A stretch of DNA of 64,000 nucleotides from Amphiura filiformis (taxonomy: Eukaryota > Echinodermata > Ophiuroidea > Amphilepidida > Amphiuridae), in the NCBI RefSeq assembly GCF_039555335.1, contig NC_092637.1, positions 42,610,990-42,674,989 on the forward strand. Direction: 5' to 3'. Position 1 is the stretch's first letter. Every line of letters begins with the position of its first letter. The position numbers and the translations under genes were made by a program. The notes under the pieces are model-generated. The model saw nothing but the letters and a program-made list of their open reading frames with translations, made no database searches and had not been told where the DNA came from. Shown in pieces: positions 11,038 to 63,200 of this stretch.

Positions 11038-13273
11038 CTGTAAGAACAAAAAAATATATATATATAAAACCTCATATGTGTCATTGGCCCCTGAACATGT
11101 TTAAAGCAAAACTGCCTATATGTCACCTGTTGGCAGTTTTGTTTTAAACATGTTCAGGGCCACAAGCTACAGGAGATTTTTTCTTGTCCAACCCAACAAC
11201 GATATAAAAATATTAATCTCTTCGGCGAGGATGTCAATTTTGACATCCTTGTCTGTTTACAAACAGAGAGGTAGACGAAAGACCTGTCAAAACTGTTCCA
11301 GTTGTCCAAACACAAAAGTATCATCAGGATGGTCCACAATAGAGTGATTCACGCAACATGAATAGTGATTACAAAGCTGTCAAGTAGAATCATGTGCTTC
11401 TATTGTCCAGTTTGCCATCAAGATTTTGAATGCAAACAGTTCAGAACTGGTCCGAATAATCAGTCCCAGAACTGCAACATAATATTCATTTACTGACATG
11501 ATTGTGTTCTGGGTCTGAACTGTTTTCATTCAAAACCTTGGACAAAAGAAGCACATGGATCTACTTGACAGCTTTGTAATCCCTATTCATGTTGCGTGAA
11601 TCACTCTATTGTGGACCATCCTTCTGACACTTTCGTGTTTGGACAACTGAAACAGTTTTGACCTCTCTGTTTGGTCCTACTTCATAGCTTTTTTAGTCCC
11701 TTATTAATGCTGCATGAATCATTCTATTGTATACTATCCTTCTGACAGATACTTGATTGAGTGTTTGGATAACTGGAACAGTTTTGACAGGTCTTTTGTC
11801 TACCCAGCTGTTTGTAAACAGACGAGGATGTCAAAATTGTCATCCTCACAGAATAGGAAAGTAACAGCGTTAGTACGGCACTGACATTTGACATCAAGCT
11901 AACCTTTGACACAGCAAACATCTGCGATCCAATTTTACTTTACGTACAAAGAAACCTTCCTAAATAACTTCTCACACAGCTTGGTCAATGTTGATTTATT
12001 ATTAGGATTAGGGTTCAGGTTAGGGTTAAGGGTAGACAAGGTACTGTTGGTCGAAGCAGCCAAAAAATATTGATTTTCATTATGTAAATCAATATTATTG
12101 AAAAATAACACTTTCATGTTTTGCAAAAGTTCATTCTACAAACCATATACGGTACTTTCAAACCTTGCTTGATTTATTGTTGTTAATGAGTTATGTATGT
12201 TTATGTAAGGCCTAAAAAAAAAATTGTTTGATTGGCGTAACCCGACCTACCCTAAAATTAGGCCCGACCCTAACTTTTTTATTGTTTTTTTGCAAAAAAA
12301 ATAATAAAATTTAAAAAATTAATTAAAATAAATCAATTTAAAAAAAAGAAGAAAAAAAGTTCCAAAGCCTTTATCAAACGAAATTTACAGCTTAAAAAGT
12401 AAAAAAAAAAGAAGAAGAAAAAAAAAAAGAATCCCGACCTACCTACCCTAAATTTTTTTTTATGTTACGCCAATCAAACAATTTTTTTTTAGGCCTAAGT
12501 GTTGCAGGTGTTTCAGCCCTCCTACAACATAACTCAAGAACCACAGGACCTACAAAAGTATATCTGTCATATTTGAAATCTTCTACACACTCGCTATGAA
12601 ATGAGCAATGCGATTTTTGCCAAAGCTGACTACCATTTGCAAGATGCTGTGAACTACCAAATCGCAACACTTAAAATTAGTGTCAAACCTTAAGGTTAGG
12701 GCTAGATTCGACATAGCAAACCTTATTTCATATTGGCATAGCAAACCATTGCCATACATGTAGCAAATCTTCAACATATTGAGCTGTTACCCAACTGGGC
12801 TATTCCATTCAAAATCCACACTACCCCTGTGGAAGATTTAGCTAAAGTCTTCCACAGAGGGTGTATGGGTTTCAAATAGAATCAACATTTGGGTAACTTC
12901 CATTTGAAATACTCACTCCAGTTATGGAAGATATAGGTAAAGCCATAATACAGGGGGAGTATGGGTTTCAAAATTATTAACCCTGACCAATTACATACTC
13001 CCACTGTGGAAGATATTTCCAAAATCTTCCACAGGGGTAGTGTGGATTTCAACTGGAATAGCCCATTTTATATTTACCTGGTACATAGAAGACTTCCTTA
13101 AACCTCTCACGCAGCAGGTTCAGTGTTGATTTGATCAGTGATAGTTTATCGCTCACGTCGCCTGCTAATAGGAGCACATCATTTTGGTACTTGATCCTAG
13201 ATATCTTTTCCATCCATAGCTGATTGTCTGGGTGGTCAACGTGGATGTCCGAGATTGCAAACACACGGGACAT
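10305..13273 (-). CDS. Calcineurin-like metallophosphoesterase, two coding exons with a frameshift
   Basis: The exons are 13273-13078 and 11037-10305 (stop included). Joining at CCA-G/GA-AAC forms VPGNHE exactly, with a GT donor (gtaaat) and ttcttacag acceptor. Metal-site blocks appear in order: SDIHVD (residues about 8-13), LAGDVSD (about 37-43), GNHE at the splice junction, SFTHF in mid exon 2 and GHQH near the end. This is the complete dinuclear-metal phosphoesterase signature. Known members hydrolyse phosphate mono- or diesters; the substrate here cannot be read. About 309 codons are present. There is no signal peptide or membrane segment, so a soluble protein is likely. About 26 codons into exon 2 the frame shifts by one base (near 10956-10960). 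Before it the frame reads QILALC, after it EIGVHTDP, as if one base of an Asp codon were lost. Either the gene is newly broken in this haplotype or the base is a sequencing error. A MITE starts 13 nt inside the intron. Confidence 0.8.
11066..11180. mobile_element. Short inverted-repeat element, copy 2
   Basis: Same family as 4681-4800: ggcccctgaacatgttta pairs with taaacatgttcagggcc. It sits in the metallophosphoesterase intron about 28 nt upstream of exon 2 in transcript sense, close to the expected branch-point region. Confidence 0.75.
11227..11849. mobile_element. Long nested fold-back element
   Basis: The outer arms (gaggatgtcaattttgacat near 11227 and tgtcaaaattgtcatcctc near 11829) and inner arms (gattcacgcaacatgaatag and tattcatgttgcgtgaatc) pair over most of the length. 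Fragments sharing tccgaataatcagtccca recur at about 26886 and 41887, so it belongs to a dispersed family. Confidence 0.8.
12208..12498. mobile_element. A-rich fold-back element
   Basis: The ends are aggcctaaaaaaaaaattg and its inverse at 12480-12498. Both arms then read attggcgtaac and gttacgccaat, followed by cgacctaccctaaa. The centre is A/AAG-rich. A decayed relative lies at about 38870-39045. Confidence 0.8.
12797..13064. mobile_element. MITE family A, copy 2
   Basis: Its ends and internal order match 7186-7462. It lies in the metallophosphoesterase intron with its edge 13 nt from the 5' splice site. Confidence 0.88.
13078..13273 (-). CDS. Metallophosphoesterase exon 1 (coding part)
   Basis: It holds 65 codons plus one base from ATG 13273, beginning MSRVFAISDIHVDHP. 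The Met was chosen because the conserved beta strand RVFAISD starts immediately after it. An acceptor-like tttatttacacag ends at about 13302 (minus strand), so this exon has about 28 nt of 5' UTR and an upstream non-coding exon is expected. An in-frame upstream reading (LSSGHVRRA) is less likely to be translated. Confidence 0.8.
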
Positions 13274-14248
13274 GGCTCTCCGAACATGCCCAGAGGACAA
13301 ACTGTGTAAATAAAACAATAATAATAATATTAAATATTGCAGCACATTCACTGGCTATTCCCCACACAAACAATACTGGTACTCAATGAATTTTGACGTA
13401 AAGAATCTTAGAAGTTATTCAGGCATGCTAAGATCATTCCTGAATGTTAATCCTTGGAGCCCATTAAAGCAACCAACATATTGCGATGTTTAACAATTCT
13501 GAATGTGATTAATCATGAAAAATCACATTTGCCCCTGCAGAGAAATGGTTGTTTCCTGGTTTGACCTAGAAAGGTTGTTTTAACCCGGGGGTAGCCACAT
13601 CCTAATACACATTCATCAGCCATCATTGAATATGGTTGTGACAATTTATTTACCCACCCACCATCTGCCAAAATTTTTGTTTTTCTTGTTTTTGAACTTT
13701 TGCTCCTTTGTTGCAAAGTGTTTCCAACTACATGTATTTGAATCTGGGTTTTATATCGTGGGTGTACTATGGTAGAACTTAATAACAATTTATATATTGC
13801 TATGTACATGTATGTACAATATTTTAAAGAACAATATAATAATTATTCAATATTATATCTTTTGATTTGAAATTTATTGAACCACTTGCAGTAAAAGATA
13901 AATTAAATATTTGGTAAAGGCTTCAGCTAATTTTGCTTATTTGCTTCCAAAGTATCTCACTTTTAGCTATGGTAATTCACATCCAGCTTTATACTTTTCT
14001 GAAGTACGGTATCTCACTTTCAGCTATACTGTATATTGGAGTAATTAGAAATTGAATACCTACACATGTATGTAAGTGGAAGAAGAATCCATTTAGATTC
14101 TTGCGATTTTGTTGACGAGAATCTTTGTGAGAATGGATTCTCGCTGAATTTCTGACCAGGGTAGCGTTAACCCCCGATCGGGGGTGAATGACCCCCTGAA
14201 TTAACAAGAGCACCAATGGTGCTGTAGCTCATTTTCCCTAATTAAATA

Positions 14249-27477: not shown

Positions 27478-27911
27478 TCACATTAATATTTATTACACCA
27501 ATAATTTTTATAAATCCAAAATTTGATATTTTTAACTGATAATTAACAGTCCTCGAAGTAAACTGTCTAAATCTAATGATATGTACTTAAAGTCTATGTA
27601 GCTGGGATAAAAAGCCGACGATCAATTGAAAATGTTGACCTTTCGTATTTAAGATAAAGATCCCCTAAAAAAAACACCACAAAGTCTGTCTTTTGGGGGA
27701 AAATCCATAAGTACATTAGATTTAGAAAGTTTACTTCGAGGACTGCTAAATTTCGAAATGAGCAATTTTTAATAATTTGCCATAAATGTGTATCATATCG
27801 CGAATATTATCATTAGGACATTCTTCGTATCCAGAATGCAATTCGATATGTCTGATGTGCTCTCATGCCCTACAAAAAATACTGTCCAAACGTTCATACC
27901 CCAGCTCTTAA
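27478..27911. mobile_element. 5'-truncated copy of the TTAA fold-back family
   Basis: It shares gccgacgatcaattgaaaat, acttcgaggactg and the right-end block aatgcaattcgatatgtctg with the full copy at 62577-63204. The right end reaches a TTAA at 27908; the left end has been lost. Confidence 0.8.
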
Positions 27912-27978
27912 AATGTCTCGGAAAAATTGCATTTTACCGTAAATCTTTTACAGTGTAGACCAATCAGGTCTGGTATAA

Positions 27979-31312: not shown

Positions 31313-31489
31313 AAACTAAATGTGCCCTCCCGTAAAATTCCCACCAGCCAATAAGGGTACGTACCCTTAATTCTTGTTGGAATTTTCAGAGGAGGAAGTT
31401 CTCCATGTCTACGTGAAATATGTCCTAAGGCAAAGAAGCCCATATGCGCTCTATGGTATTCGAGCTTTTCGTTATCTATACTGTTGATA

Positions 31490-34400
31490 TTAATATTCAA
31501 GCATTTTTGCTATCTACTGCTGACAGTAATAATTCAAACATTTTGTTATCTACTGCTGATAGTAATAATTCCAACATTTTGTTATCTACTGCTGATAGTA
31601 ATAATTCAAACATTTTGTTATCTACTGCTGATAGTAATAATTCCAACATTTTGTTATCTACTGCTGATAGTAATAATTCAAACATTTTGTTATCTACTGC
31701 TGATAGTAATAATTCAAACATTTTGTTATCTACTGCTGATAGTAATAATTCCAACATTTTGTTATCTACTGCTGATAGTAATAATTCAAACATTTTGTTA
31801 TCTACTGCTGATAGTAATAATTCAAACATTTTGTTATCTACTGCTGATAGTAATAATTCAAACATTTTTGCTATCTACTGCTGACAGTAATAATTCAAAC
31901 ATTTTGTTATCTACTGCTGATAGTAATATTCAAGCATCGTGTTATCTACTGCTGATAGTAATAATTCCAACATTTTGTTATCTACTGCTGATAGTAATAA
32001 TTCAAACATTTTGTTATCTACTGCTGATAGTAATAATTCAAACATTTTGTTATCTACTGCTGATAGTAATAATTCAAACATTTTTGCTATCTACTGCTGA
32101 CAGTAATAATTCAAACATTTTGTTATCTACTGCTGATAGTAATATTCAAGCATCTTGTTATCTACTGCTGATAGTAATAATTCCAACATTTTGTTATCTA
32201 CTGCTGACAGTAATAATTCAAACATTTTTGCTATCTACTGCTGACAGTAATAATTCAAACATTTTGTTATCTACTGCTGATAGTAATATTCAAGCATCTT
32301 GTTATCTACTGCTGATAGTAATAATTCCAACATTTTGTTATCTACTGCTGATAGTAATAATTCAAACATTTTGTTATCTACTGCTGATAGTAATAATTCA
32401 AGCATCTTGTTATCTACTGCTGATAGTAATAATTCCAACATTTTGTTATCTACTGCTGACAGTAATAATTCAAACATTTTTGCTATCTACTGCTGACAGT
32501 AATAATTCAAACATTTTGTTATCTACTGCTGATAGTAATATTCAAGCATCTTGTTATCTACTGCTGATAGTAATAATTCCAACATTTTGTTATCTACTGC
32601 TGATAGTAATAATTCAAACATTTTGTTATCTACTGCTGATAGTAATAATTCAAGCATCTTGTTATCTACTGCTGATAGTAATAATTCCAACATTTTGTTA
32701 TCTACTGCTGATAGTAATAATTCAAACATTTTATTATCTACTGCGGACAGTAATGATTCAAACATTTTGTTATCTACTGCTGATAGTAATATTCAAGCAA
32801 TTTTGCTATCTACTGCTGATAGTAATAATTCAAACATCTTGTTATCTACTGCTGAGCATTTTTGCTATCTACTGCTGACAGTAATAATTCAAACATTTTG
32901 TTATCTACTGCTGATAGTAATAATTCAAACATTTTGTTATCTACTGCTGATAGTAATAATTCTAACATTTCGTTAGTAATATAAATATTCAAGCATTTTT
33001 TGCTATCTACTGCTGATAGTAATATTCAAGCATTTTTTGCTATCTACTGCTGATAAGAACAATCCAAACATTTTGTTATCTAAGTCTGCTAATAGTAATA
33101 TTAAACATTAAACATTTTCGTTATCTACTGTCGAGAGTAATATTCAAGAATTTTTTCTATCTACTGCTGACAGTAATAATTCAAACATTTTATTATCTAC
33201 TGCTGACAGTAATTAATCAAACATTTTGTTATCTACTGCTGATAGTAATAATTCAAACATTTTGTTATCTACTGCTGATAGTAATAATTCAAACATTTTG
33301 CTCTCTACTGCTGACAGTAATAATTCAAACATTTTGTTTTCTACTGCTGATAATAATAATTCAAACATTTTGTTATCTACTGCTGATAATAATAATTCAA
33401 ACATTTTTGCTATCTACTGCTGATAGTACAAATTCAAACATTTTGTTAGTAATATAAATATTCAAGCATTTTTTGCTATCTACTGCTGATAGTAATAATC
33501 CAAACATTTTGTTATCTAAGTCTGCTAATAGTAATATTATGCTATCTACTGCTGATAGTAATAATTCAAACATTTTGTTAGTAATATTTAAAGCATTTTT
33601 GCTATCTACTTTTGACAGTAGTAATTCAAACATTTTGTTATCTACTGCTGACAGTAATATTAAAGCATTTTTGCTATCTACTGCTGACAGTAATAATTCA
33701 AACATTTTGTTATCTACTGCTGATAGTATAATTCCAACATTTTGTTATCTACTGCTGACAGTAATATTAAAGCATTTTTGCTATCTACTGCTGACAGTAA
33801 TAATTCCAACATTTTGTTATCTACTGCTTATAGTAATAATTCTAACATTTTGTTAGTAATATTTAAGCATTTTTGCTATCTGCTTTGACAGTTATAATTC
33901 AAACATTTTGCTATCTACTGCTGATAGTAATATTCACATATTTTTGCTATCTACTTTTTTAAATTCTTGTTTGAATTTTCAGAGGGGGAAGCTCTCTATT
34001 TGTTCGCAAAATTTATCCTAAGGCAAAGGAACTCATGTGCGTTTTACGGTATTCGAGCTTTTCGTTATCTACTGTTGAGAGTAATATTCAAGCATTTTTG
34101 CTATCTACTGCTGACAGTAATTAATCAAAAATTTTGTTTTCTACTGCTGATAATAATAATTCAAATATTTTATTATCTAGTGCGGACAGTAATAATTCAA
34201 ACATTTTGTTGTCTACTGATGACAGTAATAGTTCAAACATTTTGCTATCTACCACTGATAGTAATAATTCAAACATTTCGTTAGTAATATAAATATTCAA
34301 GCATTTTTTGCTATCTACTGCTAATAGTAATAATCCAAACATGTTGTTATCTAAGTCTGCTAATAGTAATATTAAAGCATTTTTGCTATCTACTGCTGAT

Positions 34401-34705
34401 AGTAATAATTCAAACATTTTGTTAGTAATATTTAAAGCATTTTTGCTATCTGCTGCTGATAGTAATAATTCAAACATTTTGTTATCTACTGCTGATAGTA
34501 ATAATTCAAACATTTTGCTATCTACTGCTGACAGTAATAACTCAAACATTTTATTTTCTACTGCTGATAGTAAGAATTCATTTATTGCTGATAGTAATAT
34601 TCAAGCATTTTTGCTATCTTCTGCTGAGAGTAATATTCAAACATTTTGTTATCTACTGCTGATAGTAATATTCAAATATTATGCTATCTACTGCTGGTAG
34701 TATAG
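31490..34705. repeat. 36-bp satellite array
   Basis: The unit is 36 bp, core ttatctactgctgatagtaa followed by taattcaaacattttg, in roughly 85-90 copies with substitution variants. Variant marker tattcaagcat recurs at spacings of 216, 144 and 252 bp, all multiples of 36, showing higher-order repetition. Long frames on both strands come from the 12-codon period and are not genes. The second half (after 32980) is more degenerate. Confidence 0.96.
33966..34100. repeat. Duplicated left flank of the 36-bp array
   Basis: The non-satellite sequence at 31371-31500 (aattcttgttggaattttcagagg, then ggcaaag and gtattcgagcttttcgttat) reappears here inside the array. A segment including the array boundary was therefore copied about 2.6 kb to the right. 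Confidence 0.85.
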
Positions 34706-39969: not shown

Positions 39970-40800
39970 TTGGTCAGGAGATGACTGATGTTCGATGGTG
40001 TAAACTTGTGAGTTTCTTTGTATATAGGCTAGTTATGAGGCGAGCCTTTTCCCTTCTGTCATGTCTGTCTTGAAGTGTGTCCCATTTCAGATCATGAAGC
40101 ATGTCCGTGACACTGCTGGTGCGTCTATACTTTACAAATCTAACGGCCCTCCTCTGGACTTTTTCTAAATTATCCTGATGAATTTTCTGGTACGGATCCC
40201 AGATTGGGCTGCAATATTCTAGCCTCGGTCTCACCAGGGTTTTATAAGCAATCTCTTTAGTGCGAGGGGAACAGTTCCAAAGGTTTCTTTTCATAAGCCC
40301 AGAACGCTGTTTGCTTTGTTGACAGTCTGATTTATGTGTTTAGCCCAAGATAAGTTGCTGGATATCTCGACCCCCCAAGTAGGGATGGTGATCTACAGTT
40401 TGGAGAGTAGAAGTTCCCATGCGATACTGATGTGGAATGAAACTTCTTTGATGTGTCACGTGCATGATGAAACACTTGGATATATTGAACTTCATCTGCC
40501 AAGTTTCTTCCCAGTTACAAAGAGAGTTGATGTCTTCTTCTTCTTGTAAAATATCACAGTCCTCAGGGGAACTGATAGCTCTGTACAAAATCAGATCATC
40601 TGCGAAGAGTCTCACTTCAGATGTTTCTCCCTCCGGGATATCATTAATATAGGCTAGGAACAATATGGGACCAAGGACAGTCCCCTGGGGTACTCCTGAA
40701 ATTACAGGTGAACTTGGGGATGCCTGTCCATCAATGACGACACTTTGCTGGCGTTAAGCCCTCAATCCAAGATTTGGTATCTCCTCTTATTCCAAAGTGT
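39970..40800 (-). mobile_element. LINE reverse-transcriptase fragment (jockey/CR1-like)
   Basis: Minus-strand frames read, from 40800 downward: GVPQGTVLGPILFLAYINDIP, FADDLILYR (the catalytic YADD-type box, here FADD), ISKCFIMHV, then after a break YKTLVRPRLEYCSPIWDPY, VQRRAVRFV and SSVTDMLHDLKWDTL. This is the palm-to-thumb and C-terminal part of a non-LTR reverse transcriptase. At least two frame breaks (near 40340 and 40770) make it a pseudogene. The clade call rests on motif style only. Confidence 0.85.
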
Positions 40801-45212: not shown

Positions 45213-48200
45213 GTTGGTGCTCAACATGTTTGATTGAGTGATGGTTCTATATCTATTGATTGATTGAGTGAGTGATTGATTGAGTGTAAGATAGTGAGCA
45301 TGCATGGTGGCTGATGAGTGGAACAGGATCTGACTCATAATTGGATGGATGCGGATTTGAGTCCCGATGATGCCATCGTGTTGTGCCCCTGCGAAAGCAG
45401 GCGAGACTCGTGGTTGTTAGGAAAGTGCAGTCTTATGCCTGTGATCAGATAGGACTATACTCATAAATTTGTATGTTTTTGTCTTTTCAGATAAACTTCT
45501 GCTGCGAATGAAACAAGGTTTGGGGAGCTCTCGTTATGCTGCACCTGATTATGAGAAACTCAAAGCGCTGGCTTTGGATAAGAAGATCGCAGCTAATAGA
45601 ACACTTATCAAGGTAAGGCTTAACCCCATGAGAACTACCAGCCGATTGGCTAAAAAGAAGTTTTCATTTTCAATTGGACCAATCAGCAACATTGTTCGAA
45701 TAATTTCACCACGCATAAAAAATGAGGTGAATTATTTGCAAAGCTCCATTCTGATTGGTGATTAAAGATATCATGTAATTGATCAATCAGAGGCAATGTT
45801 GGATTGGCAGGTAGTGCTCAGGGGGTATAACCCAAACCCAACCCATGGGTTTTTGCTATCGGAAGGGAAAAATGGAACAAAAAAGACCCCTTAAAGGGCA
45901 GGTCTATTGCAAAAACAACATCATATCATTGGCAAGCTAATATTTAATATTAGGACAATGAAAATGACTTTGAGAAAATACTGTAAATCAACTTAATTTC
46001 GCGGATACTTTATTTCGCGAATTGGGGATTGTCAGCATTTTCGCGGAGATTTAATTTCGCGGAGATTTAATTGTCAAAATTTTGACATGAATCTAAGTCT
46101 TCCGAATTTTGAAGTCAGTAAGCTTATGCATTTTAATTTTCAATTTCCACCCCAATACAAAAATACCTTAATGGGAGCATGCTGTACTGGGTCTATAAAA
46201 CATGCAGTTCATTGGTTTGAGTAGGCCTACTCTAGTATAGTAAAATATATTCCATCACAAGGCTGAATAATGATTCCATGAATTAGCTGGTGATCGTAAA
46301 AATTGCTCTTCTGATCATTAATTTTCTGCGATGTTTAAAGGGGGGTAACCCTATCGGTTTAGGATATGGATTCTCTTCAAACTTACATACAATGTCAAAT
46401 ATGGTCCCCTTTATCAATCTATGTGAGAAAACGGGAACAATTTCAGCATAAATGTGAATAATTAGCATATTAGCAAGCCAAAAAACTGATACGCGTGAAT
46501 TGCATTCTGGTCAGGCATCCCGAAACAACGGCCGAGCGCATCTCCCGGTGGAAATAGGAAGTGTTCGCCTTGGCACTGAAAACCGGCTCGCCCCTGTACA
46601 CTTTTATACCCTCTATTCATACTGATTAATCTTAAAAAACATTACATATCACTGCCCTCATTATCATTCTTGACAAGATAGCCCATGCTGTATTTACTTC
46701 GCTTAATTATTTCTTTATTTTTAGCTATTATGATGCACATTTTCACATATTTATGATTTTTCTTTGTTTTATTTTTTAACTAATTTTTTAATGGGGGAGG
46801 TGCTCTCATAATTTTTTTCATATTCCTCGTATCATGCTTGACAATATAGGTCATGTTTCCTTATTTATTTCGCCTCTTATGTATTTCTTTATTTTTGTTT
46901 TTTGTTTTATATCATTATAGCGCCATCTATAGTTTGACATTAGGGGCCTATTTGATGTATTTTTATGGGCGAATTGGTACTGGGGTGAAGTCTTCCGAAT
47001 CTATTCGATTTCATTCTATGACTACCCAAAACTCCCGTGTCGTGTAAAATGCGAACAACTGGTAACCTGTAAAACCGCTGTGTTTCATAATTTCTCCGAA
47101 ATACATCGACTTGGAGCGTCAAATTTCAGGATAGTAATGAGAAAAATAGTATCTATTATGTGATACCAAAACCTCATCAACAATGAAAAAAATCGGGGAT
47201 GATGCTGTCGATCGGGTTACGGACCTTTAATGTTTTGATCGTGTTGACAGCTGACAGCTACACCACTGTTGCAAATTCATTAGTACTTCTGAATTCCCTA
47301 AACGTAAACGGCTCTTCATTTTATAGTCACAAAATAGGAAAGCAGATCAATTCTTTATTATAGTAACACTAGTCCAAGAAGAATGGCACGCAGTGGTGTG
47401 TTCAATCAATTCGATGAGCTGAGCACCCGGCTGAGCACATGTTTTGTGAGCTATGGCTAGCCCGGATGTGCTCGTAGTCTTATTCAAAGTCTCACTTTAC
47501 CGACACTTTAATTGGCACGTACAGATCGGTCGGGGGGTCAGATGCTTGTGAGGCAGTAAAGTTTGAACAAATTGTATTACTTGGTGAAAGGAAAATGTTT
47601 TATAATTTGCCTACAGAAGTTATAAAGAAATTTAAAGATGGAGAGGAAAGAAAAGGAAGGAAAAAAAGAACAGAATTAAAATAGGGAAATAAAAGACATC
47701 ATATTGACATCTGGGATCAAGACTAGCAAACATGTTGTGACTTTTCTGTGGCCTTTGCTATGGCAAACGATGTCAGTCGGACAGAAACTCTTGCATAAAA
47801 TATGCCATCAATATGCACCAAAATTAATAACTAAGGTAAAATTTTGTCAATATTACAATAAAAAATACTATATTGACATGAAATACTATATAAATTGGGC
47901 AGTAAAGTTTAATATTTTTACAGAGAGTCGATGCTCCTGCAGCTAAACAACTTCCATTGCACGATCGTTGCTGTATTGTGAACTGTGTGAGACGTTGGAA
48001 GCTTCATGCACTGTGGGCTAGTCTGCATGATTTCAAACGCTATTTTAAATTCGTGTGATATTTAATTTCGCGAATTTTGCCTATTCGCGAAATTAAATAT
48101 CATGCGAAATTAAGTTGATTTACAGTAAATAAGATGTTTAAAATTGATATTCCGCAAAAACCAACTTAAGTGGTGAGTTCCTTCGAACGAGACAGATTTG

Positions 48201-51200
48201 GCTTAGAAAAGGTCACGTCATGAAATGAGATGTGCCCGCTTTGAGAAAAGGGACTATAAACGCTCTCAATGGACAAAACGTATATTGTTGTTGCTGCTTT
48301 TTGCTACATGAAGTTAAAGAAGAGACGACAAAAAAGCATTTATCACTTGCGGTGATAGTGCCATGGCATCACCTGGGATTCATGCATGCGCAGTGGTTAT
48401 CCTTGCGGCATTTTGTGGTACCTAGCTATGTTAGGGTTAGTTTATTTGAACAGTAGCGTGTGCAGGTTTTCAAAAGTCGGGGGCATGGGCCTCGATTCCC
48501 CTGACTGTTCTCAAATTTTTGGCTCGCTTCACTCGCTGTAAACCTCCTGATTGAGGGCATTTCCTCTGAGTTTTTGACAAAACCAGGGGCACGTTCCTCC
48601 CGACACCCCCTTTGCACACGCCACTGTATTTGAAGAACTTGATACTTAAAGCTGTTGGGCCAAATTTCATAAAAATCACCCTACCAAAGATACATGCAAA
48701 GATTGTATGTTTTTTTTTTCTCAATTATTCCTATCGTTTATTCTTTAAATGCTTTTCTTTTCATACAGGTGAACAAATTAGCAGCCATTTCTAAGGCAAG
48801 TCGAGAGAACAGCCTCTTGAAACAACACAAAATGGTATGGGATAAAGAACTCAGGAAACTTGAATCGGCAAGAAAAATTGCAGAGGACGAACACGAAGAC
48901 CTCATCCAGAGAGGTAAGTCACATCCAATTGGGCGAATCAAGAGAAGATATCTTACACTTCCCATAATGCAATTCTTCCCTGTATTGATTTGCTATTCAG
49001 TGCAACATGGGTTGATAGTGAAAAGAAATTGGTAGGCTTACAGGGAAGAAATGCATTGTGGGAAGTGTAAGATGTCTTCTCTGTGACAAATCCACCAGAA
49101 TTATATCGGTATCGAAATGTACTGAGATACGGATCTACAGTATTTTTAAATACAGTAGATCCATGCTATAAACATGTTAAAACATGCTGTACAGTGCACA
49201 GCAACAGCATCATTTTTTGCAATATTGGGAAAAAGCAGGAACGCCAAAGTGCATGTGTAACAGAAGCATGCCTTTAGGACGCAGTAAAGGCACACTGGAT
49301 AGTGTTGCTTTTACGCACTATGCAGAAAAAAAAAAGAAAAAAGAAAAAAAAAGCGCAGTGAGACTCAGTACACGGACGATCTTACCGCTTCCGATGTTGA
49401 TTAAGATACTTCTTGCATCGATCCCGAGATGCGGAAAAACCAATAGTCATTTTGTCCCACATAAATGAATAAATAACAAAAACCCCGATCCCCAGGTGGA
49501 CTCACCCATTTGGTGACGTCACACCAGATAATCATCTCTTATCCTCCTTGGTCTCCGACTGACACAGACGTGCCTATACGATTGTTCTTAGCACTGTGTA
49601 TCAATTTCTCGACCAAGGCGAGATATACGGTTGTAGTTTCACACCTTAGGTAAAACCAAACCGGTATTGTTCGGCTGAGGATAGTTTTGACGACATTTTC
49701 TGGCGAAAAAGTGACAAAAACAATCCAAAACTTAGCTACATATCGTGCCTCCGTTTGTTTACGGGACACACGAGCAATTCAAAATGGCCGCTCGTTGGCG
49801 CCATTCTTTTTGTTTCCCACGTAAAACAACCATTGCAGCCTGTAAGTTACAATAGATGTTTGTACATGCTCATGTATTTCATGTACGTTAGGTTATTGTT
49901 GCTATGTTAGGGTGATTACTCTATCGTTATGTCTTCATTACCGTCCGATAAGACGAGTTAATCAGATATTCATACGGTGGAGCTTGGTAGGGACCCGTCT
50001 GACATTTTAGCAATAAAGTTAGCCAGTCCTTACTTTACCACTAACGTTAGCGACCAGCCTCCGTGCTCAGGTTTGCTTACTGGGCTTGAGTCGCGTGTTG
50101 GGGGGGGTAGTGCCCCTCCTTTCTCCTCGCTTTGCCTCGGCCCTGTCGGGCTTGCCCTTCCCTGGTGACGGAGTGGGACCCACACCCGCTCTGTTTCACC
50201 CACAGGGAGTGCTCACGATCTTCTAAATGTCTTTTTTTTGCTTAGGACTCTCCGAGTTCCAGCTTGACGATTGGGATAGGCTCCGCCATCGCCATAAGAC
50301 GTAAGAAGAAATCTACCAAGGGCACTGGTAAGGTCGACACGGTGGATTCTGCTGTGACAGCCCCTATGGGTCATGGCAGGTCTGCTTAAGGGGCTCCGGT
50401 CCCCGGACAAGCAGGCGGTTCCTTTGGGGACTGCTAAGCGCGTCCAAAGGCTCAGCAGCCAGCGAAGCACTGACTATACGTCGGAGCAAAGTAGCAGGCA
50501 GCAGAGCGGTAACCACCAGCGAAAACCCTAGCGGGTTTGTAGCAGGAGGATACCAGTCCTTTAGCAAAAATCCTCACGGCTACGGCTTGACTTCAGTGGT
50601 AGCCGCTATGCACCCGCCCATAGCTGCCGTGAGTGGTCCGCCACACACGGCAGGTTCCCTCTAGCCAAGGGACAGCCGGTATAGCGGGGTACCCATACAC
50701 ACGGCTTGATCCTCTTACGGGGAACGCAGTGAGGCATGGGTACAGCGGTACACAGCCGGGAACCCTCACGGGTACCCACGCTGTGCCGCGCCGGTACCAC
50801 GCCAGCACACAGCTTGATCCCCCAATAGGGAACGCAGTGTGGCGAGGGTACAGCGGTCCACAGCTGGGAACCCTCACGGGTACCCACGCTGGTACCGCAC
50901 CGGCACCGCAGCACGCGCCCTAGTCGCCACAGTCTGTGTGGCAACAGGGGGGGGGGGGCGGTGCTGGTACTGCAGTACCATGGGGTTACCCTGGTGGCGG
51001 ATCCTTTCAGGGTCAGCTGCCGACTGGGTATGCCCCGTGGTACCCGCCGCAGGGTGTATTCTTCCACGGTCTAGCACCGTGGCAAGTGTCGCCTAGCGAT
51101 GGCCACGCAGTACCATCAGCTGTTGACCAGGCCAGCCGGCGTGGGGCTAACCCCAGATCAGGGTGTCCACTCAGCGCCGGGGGGTGGGGGCCTGCCACTC

Positions 51201-54200
51201 CAATCGCTCAACGCGATGGAAAAGGCAGGGTGGAGGACCGTGCAAAGAAGCTACCAACGGGAGCACTCTGAAGAAGTCGGAGACTGCCCTTACCATGGGT
51301 AGGAGCTCCGACTTCAGCAGGCCGTGCACCATCAACAGTACCCGAACCCACTACTTCTGCAGCGCCCATTTCTGGGAGGCGCAAGGGTAGCACAGGAACA
51401 GCTGGCAAGCCCCGAAGAAGAGCAAGCGCTCTTCCAAGGGAAGCTAGGCGGAGCATTCCTGGGGGCTCGGCGGTCGACGGTCCATGCCGACAGGCACTGG
51501 ATTTTTCCACAGGGGGATCTCCCAGTGGACGACCGCTTATGGCTTTCGCCCAGAGGTGGGAAACCATCTCTTTGGGTGCCTGGGTATGGTCAGTGGTGAG
51601 TGGGGGTTACAGGCTGGCAACCCAGTCTCCCCACATTCGCCTGCACATTTCAGAGGTCCACAGTAGTGCCGCCAGACGGCCCCCAGCGCCGGGCACTACT
51701 GACAGGGATCACACAGCTTCTCCCGAAGCGGGCGATTGTACCGGTCTACCCCCCGTTCTGCGGGTGATCTTGGAGCCATTGGCTCCAAGGAAGATCGGCG
51801 ACAGGAGTCCCATCCGAACCGCAGGCTGTTGAACAAGTTCTTCAGGCCCAAGAGGTTCAGGGTGGGGACTCTCGCCGGTGCTAGCCTGCCCCATCAGGGG
51901 TATGGGAACAGCATCGCTATATCTCTCGGACGCCTATCTGCATAGATGCCAATCGCCTCTCAAGATCGGAGGTATCTGCGCTTCTAGGTACAGGATCAAA
52001 ATTACCAGTTTTGATACCGCCATCCGCCTGTCCTTCTCTCCCAGGGTGTTTACACTCTTGGTCAGAGCGGTGGCAGCGTACCTGAAGCACAGGGGTGTCA
52101 ACATCAGTTGCTACCTGGACGTTTGGCTCATATACGGACGCACTCCACTGGAGACTACGGGTCTGGTGGGGTTGATAGTCCGTAGGGTGCGGGACCCTGG
52201 ATTTTTTGATCAGCTCAAAAAAAGTCCAGCATGGTCCCGACGCAGACACCACTATTTGTAGGGGCCCAGATCACCCTCATGGAGGGGATCGCGGTGCCCT
52301 CACCCGAGCGGATGACAAACATGGGGCGGTATGCCCGACTCTTGGCCTAGTCTCGGGCAATACCCGCTGTGGCATGGATGAAGGTGGCAGGCCTAATGGC
52401 CAGTATGGTAGACCTCGTACCGTACCGCCGTTTCTACGTTAGGCTTACCCAACGGCACCTTCTAGCCTGCTTGCAGGCCCAGTCATCACCCAATATCCCT
52501 CACGGTTCCGTTGTCGGAGATCGCGCGAGAGGAACTCTGGTGGTGGATCCATCAGCCTAATTTGACCCAGGGTGTCAGGTTTTCCTGCACCCCCGGTATG
52601 TCACGTAGTGACGACCATAGCGCCAAAACGGGGCTGGGGGTCCACATCCACGGAGACTCCGCCTCGGGCCTATGGGGCCATAGAGACAGAGTTTCACATC
52701 AACCTCCCTCGCTTACGAGGAGATGATCGTGGAATCACATACCGTTGTCCTGACGGACAACACAACCGTGGTAGCCTACCTCAACAGACAAGGGGACTCC
52801 GGGCCACCACGATTGTGCCTGCATGCACGACACCTGATAGGGTGGTGCAAGTTCAGGCAGATTAAGATGAGAGCGATACACATCGCGGACGTCACCAGCA
52901 TCCTCGCGCACAATCTGTCACGAGGAAGGGTGTCGGGACCAACAGAATGGGCCCTTGCTCCGCAGGTCGCTCTGACGATCTTCAAGGGGATGTACCACCC
53001 CTCGATAGATCTGTTCGCATCTCATCGCAATCATCCACTGCCGGTGTACTGCTCAAGGGTCGCGGACCCCCAAGCATTCACCGTGGACGCTCTGTCCATA
53101 GACTGGGGAGGATGACAGCTTATGCATTCCTCCGATCTCACTACTCATGAGGGTGGTGGCCAAGATCGGGTGGGAAGACTGCATTGTCATTCTGCTAACG
53201 GCAAGGCCGCTGGCACTCCCCGAGGTACCAGATCTACTCCGGATGCCCGGAGGGGAGGTACCCAGTCTATCACTAGAGCACCTGCAGTTAGCTGCATGGC
53301 CCTTACCAGGAACGTGCAGCGGAGGGATACTTTTCATCAGAAGCTGTTTTTCTCATCGCCGGGCTAGACGGAAGACTACCCTCCGTACGTATAGCCATCG
53401 TCTGGCTCCATACTACGCTTGGTGCGATGAGATAAATAGCTCTCCCGCTAGAGCCTCTGTGCTACTAGTTCCGGAGTTTCTGACAGAAAAGTTTCAAGCA
53501 AGACTTCAGCGGGCCACTGGGGCCAGCTATAAGTCAGCTATCCTCTCCATTCTCCGAGGTTTCGAGACGGGTCGACTATCAAAGCCGATGGTTACCTCAG
53601 TCTACGCCTCGACGGTATGTTCAACGAGTGTCCGCCGAAAAGGAAAGTGATCCTCCTAAGGGATCCCAACACAGTCTTAGATTACTTTAAGGGGCACCCT
53701 TTTGAGCCCCCGTCAAAAGCGACTCTTATATACGTAACTCTCAAGATGGCTTTCGGGTTTGGCGTTGGCTTCGGGACGGCGGTGCTGAGTTGCACACGGT
53801 CTCGGTTGGCTTCCGTGTTCACAAACACTGGAGCGACACTGTTTCGGGCGCTCTGTTCTCGTGACTACTGAACGGGCGCGGTGCATACCGACATTCGCCC
53901 CTCTCCATCCCCGGTTGGGCAAGGTTCGCCTGAAGACGAAGATGGGCTGGGTGTCCGATAGGGCGCTACAGCACTATTCTTCCGAACACAAGCCTTGCGA
54001 GGGACTCACGACCACATTTTCATCACCCTTACTGAGCCTTTCGGTCCAGCCGCTGTCGCAATGGCTGGTCCAGGTGTTGGTGGAGTCCGGGCGATCGCGA
54101 AGGTTTCGCGTCCCACAGCCCACTCGACACAAGCAATCTCATCATCTTGGGCATACCGTTCGGTTGTCCCTTGAGGAGATCTAGCAGGCGGTGTCCCGGA

Positions 54201-57200
54201 AGCCACCTTTGCCCTTCTCTACGATATACTTCCGCTTACGTTAGTAATCAGAGACGGGCGGGAGGTTTACCAGGACATTGTTCGGGCGATCATAATACGG
54301 TGGTGTACGGGTACCAGGTTTTCAGACTATACAGAATACTCAGCATGGTAAGAACCAGTGTTTCTATTCTTAACCACCGAACGTAATAAGTAAGGAGGTT
54401 TATGTCTGTGATCGCATGGTCTTTTTTGTTTTTCCCGACCGTTGGGGGAAAATATTTCTGACCTCGCGAAAACCATCGTTACCCGCTCCCGATCCCTGAT
54501 CAGATGCTGACCAATCTTGTACCTCCATCCGTCGGTTACTTGCTAGATCGATCTTTCAGATGTTGATGCAAGAAGTATCTTAATCAACATCGGAAACGGT
54601 AAGATCGTCCGGTGTACTGATTATAGTCCTAAACAGAAATGTTTTGTAGACTCATAACCGGAGCGATCTTACCTTTCCGATGTTGATTATTCCCGGACCC
54701 CGGCCACCCCCTACAAGTTTGGTCCGAGTAGGGGATCCCAAGTCGGATAAGGGATGATTATCTGGTGTGACGTCACCAAATGGGTGAGTCCACCTGGGGA
54801 TCGGGTTTTTTGTTATTTATTCATTTATGTGGGACAAAATGACTATTGGTTTTTCCACATCTCGGGATCGATGCAAGAAGTATCTTAATCAACATCGGAA
54901 AGGTAAGATCGCTCCGGTTATGAGTCTACAAAACATTTCTGTTTTGGACTATTTATAGTGCGCTACGCACAGGCACAACATCTAGACTTTGATCCACAAA
55001 CATCAGCACACTATACAGGTGGTTGCTGACTACTACAGCCCCACATCATTTCATAAACCATTTAACAACAATTCAGGGACACTGCTGCTTCAAGAGCGCA
55101 CACCCTACACTTTCCACAAATAACCATCGCAACCAGGATCCGCTCCCCGAGTTTCGTACGGGTTGCAATGAGACAGTAAGCAGTAAGTTCCTTGTCCAGG
55201 GGAATTTCAAGCTAACTCAATTCTTCCACGAGAGCATACTAGGCACCACCAGGATTCGAACCCGCAACCTCTCAGTAAGTGCCAAGTGAAGTGCCAAATC
55301 CCTATCACAGGTACACATATTGATGTGGATTAGCAGTGTGGAGTCACCCACCGTCACACTACATGTGAAACCCTATATTGGGGAGGAGTCAAGAAATTGT
55401 GGCCATTTATAGGGCATGTTATCAAATTTTCGGTTGGTTTGGCATGACGTCACCACTCACTCGTGATATATTGCTTCATTGCATTGGTTATGTCGGGATC
55501 TGTCCTGTTGGTTGGTCACATAGATATAGGTGATCAAATGATATGACAGCTTCATAATAATTGTGTACATCCATATCAAAAGGATGCACTTACAGTGTCT
55601 GTTTTTGCATAAAGCTAGGAATAAATACAAGACTAGTTCATCTCAAGTGGTGGTCACTTCAAATTATCCCCAAGTTACATGGTTTAGGAATGTTCTCTGT
55701 ATGCCTAAACCATGTGACTTGGAGATGATTTGAAATTACTTTCATTTGAGATGAGTTGGATGTTACTCCTAGCTATTATGTAAAAAAGAGACACGTGTAG
55801 CAGCCGACAAACCTCCTTTTGATATGGATGTACATGTAATTCTTAATCTCTTTTGACAGGTACCTCAGAAGAGTCTTCCATCTCCATGTTCATGCTAGAC
55901 ATGGAAGACTACACCCTGCAACTTGCAGCGCAACTCCAAGAATTCCAACAAGCAACCGCTGATCCCATCTGGACCCTGAAGGAAGACCTCCAAGCATGGC
56001 TCGCCGAAAACGGACACTTGGTCGGTACAGACCAGATGGGAGAAGTTCTTGACCAGCACGCGGAAATCTGCTGCACGATTGATTCGGTGAAACAGCAGCA
56101 GGATCGGATCATGTCTGTGTTGAATAAAGAACAGAGGGAATTAGAAATGGATTTGAACTCATCCACGTTGAACAAGATTTTTACAGGAGCGGAAAAGTTT
56201 GTAGTGGAGGGGATACCGGAGGAAGCAAAGGAGTTGTCGTGTCCGCACAATGCGTTAAAGGAGTCTGTTTTGAAGGAGTTTATTGTGTTGGATAGGAGGT
56301 ATAAAGGAATGCTGAAAGAGCTGGATAAGAGGCATGAATTTGTCAGAAGGTAAGATACGAGGATATATGGATGGTGTTCTGTGGCTCAAACATGGCCTTA
56401 ATCTTCCATGCAGGTTGTGTGAGTTTCGAATAGGGTTACCTGAATGAGTGACTCCATTTGAAATTCACACTCCCTGTGTGGGAGATTAAGGCCATGTCTT
56501 CCATAGGGGGTGTAGGGATTTGAACTTGAATAGCCCAGTAACTATGGGAGCTGGAGCAACATCTGTACTTTTAAATCACTATAGTCTGTCCTGTATTAAT
56601 TGAAACATGACCTACACTAAGATGCACAGATCTTACACAAATGGGGGTCATGTTGCCGGCTTACGTGAGAACCACAGAGAAGAAAGAAACAGAGCGTGTG
56701 CAACCAGTCAAAGTCCCTGTGTATTGTATGGTGTAAGTTCTCGCATATCCATGAGGGCAGATTGTTCGATCGTGTTGTGTCTAACAAACACGCCAGCACT
56801 GCGTGCTTTCGTGTTGCATGCTTTCGGGATTACGCGATAGACAGTGAATATACGCGGTAATTGCGTAGCAGTCTCGCCTGTCGCATTTCATGGAACAATC
56901 GGCCCTCATTATCGGGTGATGCTGAGACTTTGACTGGTTACACGCGCTCTGTTTCTTTCACCTCTGTGGTTAGAACATACTTCAAATGTTACAGATCATT
57001 TACAGAAAGAAGGAAGGGAAATGATCTGTGGAAGGAGGGAGTATGGAGTTATTAATAAAGGTTAGTGGATGGGGTCATGTCCCACCTTATACTGAATAGA
57101 CTATAAAACACTTCATTTACACATTTTTTCTTTGCAGATCTGATACCGGTGAATGGGATCCCAATGATCACTTTACTTTCCAAGCCCTTGTAGAACAACA

Positions 57201-60200
57201 TTCACATGACTTGCCGAATAGGAGAACACTGTACATGGATAGGTTGAGGAGGCAGCTACCGCATAAAAATAGAACAGAATTGGTGAGTTGACTCGCTTAT
57301 TATGCTACCCTGGAATGAGCGTTAACCCTATGAGAACTACCTGCCTATTGGTCAAAAAGAAGTTCTCATTATCAATTGGACCAATCAGCCACATTGTTAG
57401 AATAATTTCACCATGCAAAAAAATTGGAGTGAATTATTTGCAAAGCTCCATTCTGATTGGTGATTAAAGTGAAGATATCACATAATTGACCAATCAGAGG
57501 TAATGTTAGATCGGCAGGTAGTGATGTAGTTTTGAGACGTCGTGGCTGCTGCATTGGTGTTCTTTGTTTCACACGCACCTGTTCAAGCCAATAGTATGTC
57601 TGTATGTACTTACAGTGGGGGCACAATGGGCCATTCACGAAGGATATACGTCCGACTTGTACAGGTCTGAGGTGCCCGGCAAACAAAGAACGTCAGCTCA
57701 GCAACCAGGATGTCTCGAAACTGCCAGGATGTCTCGAAACTACCAACTTGGGACTTAACGCTCATTTTGTGGGAGCAGGTCACATACAAATAGAGAGAAG
57801 GTAAAAACTGGTTATTTTCTGTATGACATTTTCTGGAATCCATAAAGTATGACATAAAGCTTTAAAAGTGGAATTTTTTGCAGAAAATCAGACCTGAAGC
57901 TTTTCAGCTTCGTAGCGGATTTCAGCTTTTTTTGTTTCACAAATTTACATTTAAGTGACGTCAACTTAATGTCACTATAGACGAATCCAATTTCACACAT
58001 TCCTACACCTCAATGGCAGCCATAGCTGGGTCCCGGTCGGGTATATCACACCTAAAATATGAAATGATGCGTCCTTGGCGGGGATTTTAAACTGCAATTC
58101 ATCACCCGTGTCACCCGTTACACATAGACAATAGAATGATACAACATTACAATACAACATTGTCAACAATGACAATACAACATTTCATCGATTTTTAAGT
58201 GGCTTTAATCCACCCAATTGGGCAGTTACAACACCAGTTTGGTGCGCTGGGGACCCAGTCATGGCCGACTAAATTCTAACCATCACTTGGCTCGTTGCAT
58301 TCATCTATAGACCACTTGACATCACTGTTTATCAACAAAGGCGAGGGACTCGTCTATCGATATGCTCGAACGAGCCACTACACTGATCAATGGCTTTCTT
58401 GTACTGTATGCACGGTTGTTTGATGTATATAGAATTGGCTTCATTATTAACTAAATGCAAACTATAGATGGCGCTATTTATCCTAAATCATATTTCTTAA
58501 TTTGCAAGGAGTAGGTGATCAATATTGCCTTTAAAACAGATGGAATAGGTGAAACAAGCAGCAAAGAAATTCTATAAACATAATTCATCAAAAAATAAAA
58601 GAAATTAGTTGTATTAAAAGTTTGAAAGAGTAATTGTCAGTAACTAAATAGCGCCACCAATTTTGTCATAAATAGATACATTTTATATCCGAAAAGCTTT
58701 AAAAAATGCTGTAAAAGTGAATAATTTAGTAAAAGAGGAGAAATTTTAAAGTTGAAAATGACTCAAAAGCATCTGTACACATTAGCATGATATCGCTTTT
58801 AGCTGTTTAAGCCTAAAATTGGGTTGTACGTGATGTTTTGCTTGAAAAACTAATAAATGATCACATCAAACAGCCGTGTATGAAATGTGACGGGCAATTT
58901 AAAATGCATGTGCCCTTAGCAGACTATGATGCGTACGCACACTGCAGGGCAAAGAACAATGTAAATTGTAATAATGCGCACGCATACTGCCGGGTAATGA
59001 CGTCACATGCCAAGTGGTCTATAGCACTACATAGGATATTTATCATATTTTGTCTATAAAGAAATAGGCCTACTACTATGATAGCTTTACTCAGTATGAT
59101 GCATGGTATTTTGTACGTGTCCCCATGTTGTTTTGGGTCATCCACTCCAGTAAAAAAACCAATAAAATACATAATAAAATAGACATTACAAAACTTTGCT
59201 AAACCGTTGAAGTTTTCAGTATATGATAGCCTAATGTTTGTATTGGGTAATACTTATAATACAGTATTTCAACAATTTTCAAAAATGCCTCCTTTGGCCT
59301 CCATAGAGCAGATGGTACTAGCAGTCGCACTGTTGTTTTATGTATATGGTCATTTTCACGGTAAAGGGTGTAACTTTTGATTTTTAGGGTCAAAATTTCA
59401 AACCACTTAAATATGTTTCTGTTTACTACAATCATGCATAGAAGCAACTTAAATTCAAGTAAAATAATGTTTCAAGGCTTAAACCTTTTGATTTCTAATA
59501 AAAAATTTGACATTTGCATAACATTTTGGTTAAAATCTAAGAAAAAATGTATTTTACATAACCTCAGAAAATTTTGACATGAAAGCTGGAATACATGTGA
59601 AATTCCATTCCAAAGTAAGTCAACAGATATAAGTTAAATTTTATACCATGTTTTGCTATGTTTGTAATTGCAGTTTTGAAAATTTTTAACATCAAGTGTC
59701 ATTTACAATGGAAATTTCCAAACCTTAAACATATTTTTTAAGTTTTAATTGGGTTCCTAAAATAATTTGAATGTCTAACTTCATGTACAAATACTACTTG
59801 ATGAAAGGAACCTCCCAGCCAAGTTTCACAGAAATTGGAGTTATTTTTTAGAATTGGCAATTCAAGCGATTTGTGTTTCGGAGGCTTCAGTTAACAACAC
59901 AGGTGATCATAAAAGTAAAATATTTAGCTAACTACTACAAGTTGACATAAAAAAATAGGTAAAAAATATCACAATTACCAATTTTCATGCTTTGCTTCTA
60001 AGTATTGAAATTTCAAAAATTCAATTATCACAGCAAGTCATTTTTTTTGTTTCGGAGGCTTCATGTTAACAATTGTTAAACATTGCAGAAGTAGTTTTTT
60101 TGAAAACAACAGTGTTGGGATCATCTAAGCTGTTATTTTCTTGTGTGTATTGAATCAATGATTCTATGCGGCAGATATTGTAGATTTATCACACATTAAT

Positions 60201-63200
60201 TTTTTCACCCATTTGTTAAGTATGGTGTTTTTTGCATGTGAAGCCTCCGAAACAGGCTTTTTAAGGTATCAGTATATTTTTCAAACATTAACCATAATGT
60301 CAATTTTTTTTAAAATTTATGACATTCTGCACATATCAAGTAATAATTACAATGCAGATATCATTATGAAACACACCAATTTAGATATGCATAGATGATA
60401 ATTAAGTTTACTGTTGTTTCGGAGGCTTCATTTGTTTCGGAGGCTTCAATTGTTAACGGAAAGTTTGTATTGGGTCCCATTTTCAAACGGTGATATATAT
60501 CTCCACGATTTAAAAACATGTGACTTGAGGATCTACTTTGCTACATTTTGATAAATAGATTGGATGAGCTCTTTTATTTATATTTGCACAAGCTTGCTGA
60601 ACAGTTTGTTTCGAGGCTTCAAAAAGTTAACGGAAAACGGCTATTTGAAGTCAAGATTTTATAAAAAATTTTAAAAGCTTGCAAATCGGCTAATTTTTGT
60701 TACCCATTTCAAGTTAAGATAACAACTGTTATAAATCAAGATGAAGTGAAGAAATAACCAAGAATTATGAACCAAAGCTACACCCACAAAGTTTGTTAAC
60801 AATTGTTAACGGAAAATGAAGCCTCCGAAACGACAAATATCGAAGTCCGGTTCTCAAAAATACAGGGCCGTTCACAATTAAATCCAATCTGGCAATGTTT
60901 ACTGATCATATGACTCTACATACAGGAAAAGAAAAATTATCCATGAACTAACTGAAGAAAACACAGGGTTTTACAAAATGTTACTGTTTTTTATAGTTTT
61001 TCAAAATGGCAATATTAAGTACATTTAAGCCTGCTAAAACTGAACGCAGTTAACTCCCAAAGCTGATTATGCTACCCAAGGTAGCTGCTAACTAGATGAC
61101 TTATGTGGCCAAAAATCATGGAATTCTGTGGCTTTATTGGAACACTACGGATTAAAATGTTAAAAATCCAAAGTTACACCCTTTACCGTGAAAATGACCA
61201 TATAGCTTCATTATTAACTAAATGGAATACTATAGATGGCGCTATTTATCCTAAATTATATTTCTTTATTTGCAAGGGTTTAGGTGATTAATGCTGCCAT
61301 TAAAACAGCTGGAATGGGCGAAACAAGCAGCAAGGAAATTTTATAAACATATTTGATCAAACAATAAAATGTATTATTTGTTTTAAAACCTTGAAAGAGT
61401 AAATTCCAGTAACTAAATAGCACCACCAATTTTATCATTAAAAAATACTCTGAAAGTGAATAAATTTGTAAAAGAGGGGAAATTAAAGTTGAGAATACAC
61501 GTACAAAAGCATCTGTATACATAAGTATGATATCACTTTTAGCTGTTTGAGCCTGAAATTTGGTTGTACATGACGTTTTGTTTGAAAAACTAATAAATGA
61601 TCCCATCAAACATCCGTGACAAGTGGTCAAAATACCAACATTCAATCTTGACTAGCCATGTCGCTAGACGTTTTCCGAAAGATATATGTGTACATCCATA
61701 TCAAAAGGATGCACTTGTCGGCTGCTACATGTGTCTCATTTCACATAATCGCTAGGAATAAATACCAGATCTCCGAAGTGGAGGTCACTTCAAATCATCC
61801 CAAGTCACATGGTTTAGGAATACAGATAACATTTCTTATACAATTTGACTTGGGGATGATTTGAAGTGACCTGCACCTTAGGCTGCACTTGATATGAGTC
61901 TGGTATTTATTCCTAGTTATTATGTGAAATGAGACACATGTAGCAGCCGACAAGTGCATCGTTTTGATATGGATGTACACATATCGTCAGTCGCTTCATC
62001 CGTTCAAGTGGCAAAAATGTGTTTTGACAAACCGCTCAACACTTAGTAAGATACATGCATGACGATGATAAAATTTTTCTTCACATTTGTTTCAGGTTGA
62101 GCATGAAGAGTGGGTGAGAAGTCATCGTTATTATTCATCCGTTCAAGCGGCAAAAATGTGTTTTGACAAACCGCTCAACACTTAGTAAGATACATGCATG
62201 ACGATGATAAAATTTTTCTTCACATTTGTTTCAGGTTGAGCATGAAGAGTGGGTGAGAAGTCATCGTTATTATAACAACCATAGGAAAACTCTGATCAAC
62301 ACATGGGCCAAATCCAAGCAAGAGTTGTACAACAAAGCGGAAGCCGTGTTTGCTGACGCATTCCTGGCGGAGGAACTCCAACGAGTGTCTCTTATCAATC
62401 ACCAAAAACAGCAAGAGATATGTCAGCAGCTCTATGAGAAAGTATGTAGCCTACCAGTTTGTTTTTTGTGTGTTTGTTGTTTTGTACCCTGGGTCCATAT
62501 TCAGAGGGAAATTAAATTTAAGTACTGTATAGGTGGAAATTTTTGTCGGACATGAAAACGTGGGTGTTCTTTTTAAGGGATGGGGTATGAACGTTTGGAC
62601 AGTATTTATTGTGGGACATTAGAACATATAAGACATATCGAATTGCATTCTGAATACGAAGAATGTCCTTCTGATATCAAATAATTTTGATTACATTCGC
62701 AATGTAATACACATTTTATGGGAAATGATTAAAAATTGATATTTTTGATATTTAACAGTAATCGAAGTAAACTTTATAAATCTGATGATTTATACTTAAA
62801 GTGTGTATGTAGGTGGGATGAAAAGCCGACGATCAATTGAAAATTTTGACCTTTCGTATTGAAGATATGGATTTTTTTCCGCAAAACACCATTAGGTCTT
62901 TTTGGGATAAAATCCATATCTTCAATATGAAAGGTCAAAATTTTCAATTGATCGTCGGCTTTTCCCAGCTACATACACTTTAAGAATATATCATTAGATT
63001 TATAAAATTTACTTCGAGGACTGTTAAATATATCGAAAATGTGAAAAATATCAACTTAAAAGTTGTATTATATCGTGAATTTCAAAAATTATTTGATATC
63101 AGAAAGACATTCTTCGTATTCAGAATGCAATTCGATATGTCTGATGTGCTCTCATGTCCCACAAAAATACTGTTGAAACGCTCAAAACGCTCATTCCAGA

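What the first reader, a model, noticed from the sequence alone, without database searches (positions are those of the whole stretch)
61995..62272. Duplicated acceptor makes a decoy (poison) splice site in CCDC148
A 139-bp tandem duplication copied the exon 6 acceptor plus 38 coding bases. If the upstream copy (AG at 62094-62095) is used, the reading frame runs 29 codons and meets TAG at 62183-62185, truncating the protein or triggering decay. The true acceptor is the second copy. The near-identity of the copies shows it is recent, and it abuts a fold-back element that may have helped cause it.
Basis: partly seen in the sequence, partly recalled or inferred. Interest (0 to 1): 0.72.

Follow-up and report, generated by a model that had tools for sequence, protein, structure and literature searches.

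The report
Duplicated splice acceptor in ciliary gene
A 139-base stretch covering the start of one exon of a CCDC148-like cilia gene has been copied in tandem, giving two equal splice acceptors; using the first could truncate the protein, but a hidden donor site in the copy could also cut the extra piece out again and add only six amino acids, a known route to a new intron.

Summary
61995-62133 and 62134-62272 are a 139-bp tandem duplication with one mismatch. Each copy carries 101 intron bases, the same AG acceptor and 38 coding bases. Five exons (45491-62441) join in one open frame into a protein like human CCDC148; the human sequence was recalled, not taken from a database. Used alone, the upstream acceptor meets TAG at 62183-62185, 256 nt before the exon's donor, so decay is plausible.

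The 'poison' reading misses one point. The copied coding piece contains a latent donor, TGG|GTGAGA at 62114, scoring better than the exon's own donor. Pairing it with the second acceptor removes 121 nt and the stop, leaving an in-frame 18-nt microexon, VEHEEW. A potato RdRp gene gained an expressed intron by this route (PMC4974935). A human reporter library found no order preference between equal tandem acceptors (PMC6783452).

Most likely: a young break-repair duplication giving mixed splicing, a new member of a known kind. No reads, relatives or genome were available, so all RNA use is inferred and an assembly error is not excluded.

The parts
61995..62133 (+). upstream copy of the 139-bp tandem duplication (101 intron bases + 38 coding bases)
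62134..62272 (+). downstream copy of the duplication, 138 of 139 identical
62094..62095 (+). upstream acceptor AG
62233..62234 (+). downstream acceptor AG, keeps the CCDC148-like frame
62183..62185 (+). TAG met in frame 29 codons after the upstream acceptor, 256 nt before the last base of the exon
62096..62113 (+). possible in-frame 18-nt microexon (VEHEEW)
   Evidence: its use in RNA is inferred
62114..62234 (+). possible new 121-nt intron: latent donor TGG|GTGAGA to the second acceptor, 36% GC
   Evidence: its use in RNA is inferred
62235..62441 (+). exon of the CCDC148-like gene (207 nt, phase 0)
57138..57282 (+). preceding exon of the gene
55860..56349 (+). exon of the gene
48769..48913 (+). 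exon of the gene
45491..45612 (+). exon of the gene, first one located
61684..61984 (.). fold-back element (86-nt arms, 97% complementary, 129 nt apart) ending 10 bp before the duplication
   Evidence: no role shown

Best explanation
A recent DNA-break repair event copied in tandem a 139-bp segment spanning the 3' splice site of a CCDC148-like exon (the copying is what the sequence shows; the repair mechanism is inferred). The gene now has two near-equivalent acceptors, and I expect mixed splicing (inferred). Joining the preceding exon to the second acceptor gives the normal protein. Joining it to the first gives a stop after 29 codons and probable nonsense-mediated decay, unless the latent donor at 62114 pairs with the second acceptor; then a new 121-nt intron is removed and the protein gains six in-frame residues (VEHEEW). 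The locus so has the layout of intron gain by tandem duplication across an intron-exon border, as in a potato RdRp gene, rather than that of a dedicated poison switch.
For: Tandem copies with 1 difference and 1-bp junction homology. Identical acceptors, tracts and branch-like motifs, with equal predicted accessibility, 0.25 and 0.26. Latent donor at 62114: 7.4 bits and -9.3 kcal/mol against U1, versus 5.6 bits and -1.8 for the exon's own donor; 69 of 3373 GT sites on the + strand of the window reach its score and 20 reach both values. Best of 10 GT sites between the acceptors; its use leaves 18 nt, in frame, and removes the stop. Same anatomy in potato with 106 RNA-seq reads over the new junction (PMC4974935). 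No order preference between equal tandem acceptors in a human reporter library (PMC6783452 passages).
Against: No RNA evidence at all. The donor matrix is recalled and human-like, its organism unknown. An 18-nt microexon is usually recognised poorly (general knowledge). The same latent donor lies in the second copy (62253) and so in the ancestral exon, where it was presumably ignored. The region around both acceptors and the latent donor is predicted to be mostly paired (unpaired 0.23-0.26). The reporter library used sites 2-59 nt apart; here they are 139 nt apart. An assembly artefact is not excluded.
Confidence: 0.45

Rival explanations
1. Plain poison site: the upstream acceptor is used without any new intron, giving a truncated or decayed transcript that lowers CCDC148 output.
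For: In-frame TAG after 29 codons, 256 nt before the exon's last base; both acceptors look equally strong.
Against: A latent donor better than the exon's own one sits 18 nt after the upstream acceptor and would restore the frame. Nothing points to regulation. Whether an intron follows (needed for decay) was inferred from the donor at 62442 only.
Confidence: 0.2
2. Silent duplication: the second acceptor is used almost exclusively and the upstream copy is inert intron.
For: The second acceptor keeps the natural 207-nt exon, the first gives 346 nt; exon context is known to influence choice between duplicated sites (recalled, Reed and Maniatis 1986, not read).
Against: The signals are identical, and no order preference was seen for equal tandem acceptors (PMC6783452).
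Confidence: 0.15
3. Assembly artefact: two overlapping contig ends or two haplotypes were laid in tandem, and the genome has one copy.
For: Taking out one copy leaves an ordinary exon border; the single difference would fit an allelic base; only one such near-identical two-copy repeat of this length is in the window.
Against: No run of N in the window; the junction is a clean join with 1 bp of homology, as break repair leaves it; other, older two-copy tandem duplications exist in the window.
Confidence: 0.2

Closest known systems
Potato RdRp gene PGSC0003DMG402000361: intron gained by tandem duplication across an intron-exon border (PMC4974935; parts 1-3 of 5 read)
   Same: Duplicate holds the 3' part of an intron and the 5' part of the exon; acceptor, tract and branch site come from the parental intron; a latent donor lies in the upstream copy's coding part.
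   Different: There the copies differ at 10 bases, genomic reads and 106 RNA-seq reads prove duplication and splicing, and sister species lack the intron. Here one difference, no reads, no relatives.
[quoted passage not shown]
   Same: Both copies contain AGGT (CAG|GTTGAG), so a precise 139-nt intron is formally possible.
   Different: That donor is weak: 1.9 bits, rank about 780 of 3373. The latent donor at 62114 fits the 'imprecise' variant that the review describes.
Poison exon / splicing coupled to nonsense-mediated decay (general knowledge)
   Same: Use of the first acceptor alone introduces an early stop well before the exon's donor.
   Different: Regulated poison exons are typically conserved (recalled); this copy is recent, near-identical and shows no sign of regulation.

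Membership tests
Intron gain by tandem duplication across an intron-exon border (potato RdRp type) | Tandem duplication spanning an intron-exon border | tested here: met
Intron gain by tandem duplication across an intron-exon border (potato RdRp type) | Usable latent donor in the coding part of the upstream copy | tested here: met
   62114 TGG|GTGAGA by recalled matrix and U1 pairing; met at sequence level only
Intron gain by tandem duplication across an intron-exon border (potato RdRp type) | Acceptor, tract and branch-like site inherited from the parental intron | tested here: met
Intron gain by tandem duplication across an intron-exon border (potato RdRp type) | New intron removed in mature mRNA | not testable with these tools
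   no RNA reads
Intron gain by tandem duplication across an intron-exon border (potato RdRp type) | Relatives lack the duplication and the intron | not testable with these tools
   no relative found; no genome held
Rogers AGGT model (precise gain) | Duplicated AGGT works as donor and acceptor | tested here: inconclusive
   AGGT present in both copies; donor weak, 1.9 bits
Poison exon / NMD-coupled splicing | In-frame stop more than about 50 nt before an exon junction | tested here: met
   256 nt to 62441; the downstream exon was not traced
Poison exon / NMD-coupled splicing | Regulated or conserved use | not testable with these tools
   no reads, no relatives
CCDC148 orthologue | Sequence likeness to CCDC148 along the spliced exons | tested here: met
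   score 391 versus at most 101 in 500 shuffles, against a human stretch typed from recall; Pfam only sub-cut-off hits and PDB only E 0.69-0.76

The most novel reading that the evidence does not exclude
A spliceosomal intron is being born in this animal gene: 62114-62234 is spliced as a new 121-nt intron in part of the transcripts, adding an in-frame VEHEEW repeat to a ciliary protein, while products that keep it carry the stop and are cleared by decay. It would be an animal counterpart of the potato RdRp case, caught when the copies still differ at 1 of 139 bases.
Probability: 0.25. Interest if true: 0.5.

Novelty: new member of a known kind. Interest (0 to 1): 0.3.

Why it matters
Few intron gains are caught while the source copy is still almost identical; PMC4974935 stresses how seldom source sequences are found. 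If the 62113-to-62235 junction is expressed, this locus shows the step from duplicated acceptor to new intron, with decay as a possible backup, as PMC2809761 proposes for Drosophila (abstract read). If not, it is an ordinary small tandem duplication.

Tried and rejected
Precise AGGT (recursive) splicing at 62096: kept only as a minor option, donor 1.9 bits.

Likeness of a stretch about 61610-61632 to the start of the duplication (22 columns with 3 non-matching): 6 of 1000 shuffles reached its score in one chosen region, uncorrected. It borders the end of a dispersed repeat (58438-58878 / 61205-61618); not pursued.

Fold-back element as cause: neither shown nor excluded. It ends 10 bp away; a related copy at 55562-55834 ends 25 bp before another acceptor that is not duplicated.

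Relatives: viral contigs gave 4 pattern matches and genome contigs (prokaryotes) 9, none confirmed by tblastn. Species not identified.

Papers: (wording for duplicated splice sites or acceptors) found 3 papers, of which passages of PMC6783452 were read; one search was mostly off-topic (15 of 18,929 listed); some searches were read as listings except for the papers named in the report.

Full report
Observation. The window holds a 139-bp tandem duplication, 61995-62133 and 62134-62272, identical at 138 of 139 bases, the one difference being 62009 T / 62148 C. The match extends one base, to 62273, so the junction has 1 bp of homology. The longest exact run, 125 nt, compares with 10 nt in each of 5 shuffles. 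Divergence is 0.7% (95% interval 0.02-3.9%), so the event is young unless gene conversion keeps the copies alike. The C of the downstream copy lies in a CpG and the T of the upstream copy in a TpG, so the upstream copy may carry the derived base; this is inference.

Gene. Four exons (48769-48913, 55860-56349, 57138-57282, 62235-62441) join in frame into 329 residues. With a further exon at 45491-45612 the join is 369 residues with no stop, and all five exons have AG and GT at their borders. The 329 residues align over residues 8-329 with a stretch of human CCDC148 typed from recall: score 391 against at most 101 in 500 shuffles. Pfam gave two hits below their cut-offs (E 0.11 and 0.86) and PDB three at E 0.69-0.76, so the name rests on recall. 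PMC11781205 (passages) places GFP-tagged mouse Ccdc148 at the foundation of the ciliary central pair, with the caveat of overexpression, and reports homologues from choanoflagellates to mammals but none in nematodes.

Splice options. Both acceptors have the same pyrimidine tract and branch-like motifs and like predicted accessibility (0.25 and 0.26; both mostly paired). Use of the first alone gives a 346-nt exon, a shifted frame and TAG after 29 codons, 256 nt before the exon's last base. Decay is plausible if another exon follows, which the donor at 62442 implies but which I did not trace. Between 62096 and 62234 there are 10 GT sites. The best, TGG|GTGAGA at 62114, scores 7.4 bits and -9.3 kcal/mol against U1, while the exon's own donor scores 5.6 bits and -1.8. 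The other four donors of the gene score 8.4 to 11.9 bits, so the latent site is weaker than those by matrix. On the + strand of the window 69 of 3373 GT sites reach its score, 22 reach its U1 energy and 20 reach both. Used with the second acceptor it gives a 121-nt intron of 36% GC beside an exon of 44% GC, of which 20 nt were coding, removes the stop, and adds VEHEEW in frame. By density such a score is expected 0.04 times per 38 nt, 0.014 in frame; this was computed after seeing the site. Other exonic GT sites of the gene reach similar matrix scores (7.7 at 48769 and 7.0 at 57149), but with weaker U1 pairing, -8.4 and -5.6.

Which acceptor wins. In a human reporter library equal-strength tandem acceptors showed no preference by order, for sites 2-59 nt apart (PMC6783452, passages). 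Here the distance is 139 nt and the species unknown, so this is only a guide. That the second acceptor keeps the ancestral protein is clear from the frame; that the first is a mere decoy is not.

Comparison. The potato RdRp case has the same anatomy: duplication across an intron-exon border, a latent donor from the upstream copy's coding part, and the other signals inherited from the parental intron, proven by genomic and RNA reads (PMC4974935, parts 1-3 of 5). PMC3443670 (passages) calls use of latent sites inside a duplication 'imprecise' gain, and its table lists 188 events under tandem genomic duplication. PMC2891723 (passages) reports 5 probable cases among 31 novel Drosophila intron positions and cites 1901 duplications in natural lines, 624 of them with some exonic sequence but no whole gene; so a duplication of this kind is not in itself surprising. 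PMC8355091 (abstract and passages) ties small tandem duplications to fill-in of break ends and end-joining, which fits a 1-bp junction; that this happened here is inference.

Ordinariness. Of 51 tandem-repeat rows in the window, 5 outside the satellite at 31479-34702 have a period of 36 or more, each with about two copies, this one included; it is the most alike of the five (99% against 85-95%).

Limits. No genome, reads or relatives were available, so an assembly artefact, polymorphism and all use in RNA stay open. The donor matrix was recalled.

Noticed in passing
61684-61984 and 55562-55834: Two related fold-back (MITE-like) elements lie close upstream of acceptors of the same gene: 10 bp before the duplication, and 25 bp before the exon at 55860; flanking TA dinucleotides look like target duplications (read by eye).
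   Followed up: partly
62588-63184 and 27518-27913: A second, unrelated fold-back element of about 600 bp starts some 150 bp after the exon's donor, with a relative elsewhere in the window; the duplicated exon so sits between two fold-back elements.
   Followed up: no
45620-45816 and 57322-57523: One repeat (88% identical) begins 7 and 39 nt after two exon ends of the gene.
   Followed up: no
49361-54952: A large GC-richer insertion in an intron, with like segments in inverted order near its ends (94% identical); it recalls a DIRS-like retroelement, but four of its ORFs gave no Pfam match.
   Followed up: partly
101-684: Another two-copy tandem duplication (about 292 bp, 91-92% alike), older than the one studied.
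   Followed up: no
40343-40753 (-) and 13052-13354 (-): A reverse transcriptase fragment (RVT_1) and a calcineurin-like phosphoesterase fragment (Metallophos) by Pfam.
   Followed up: no
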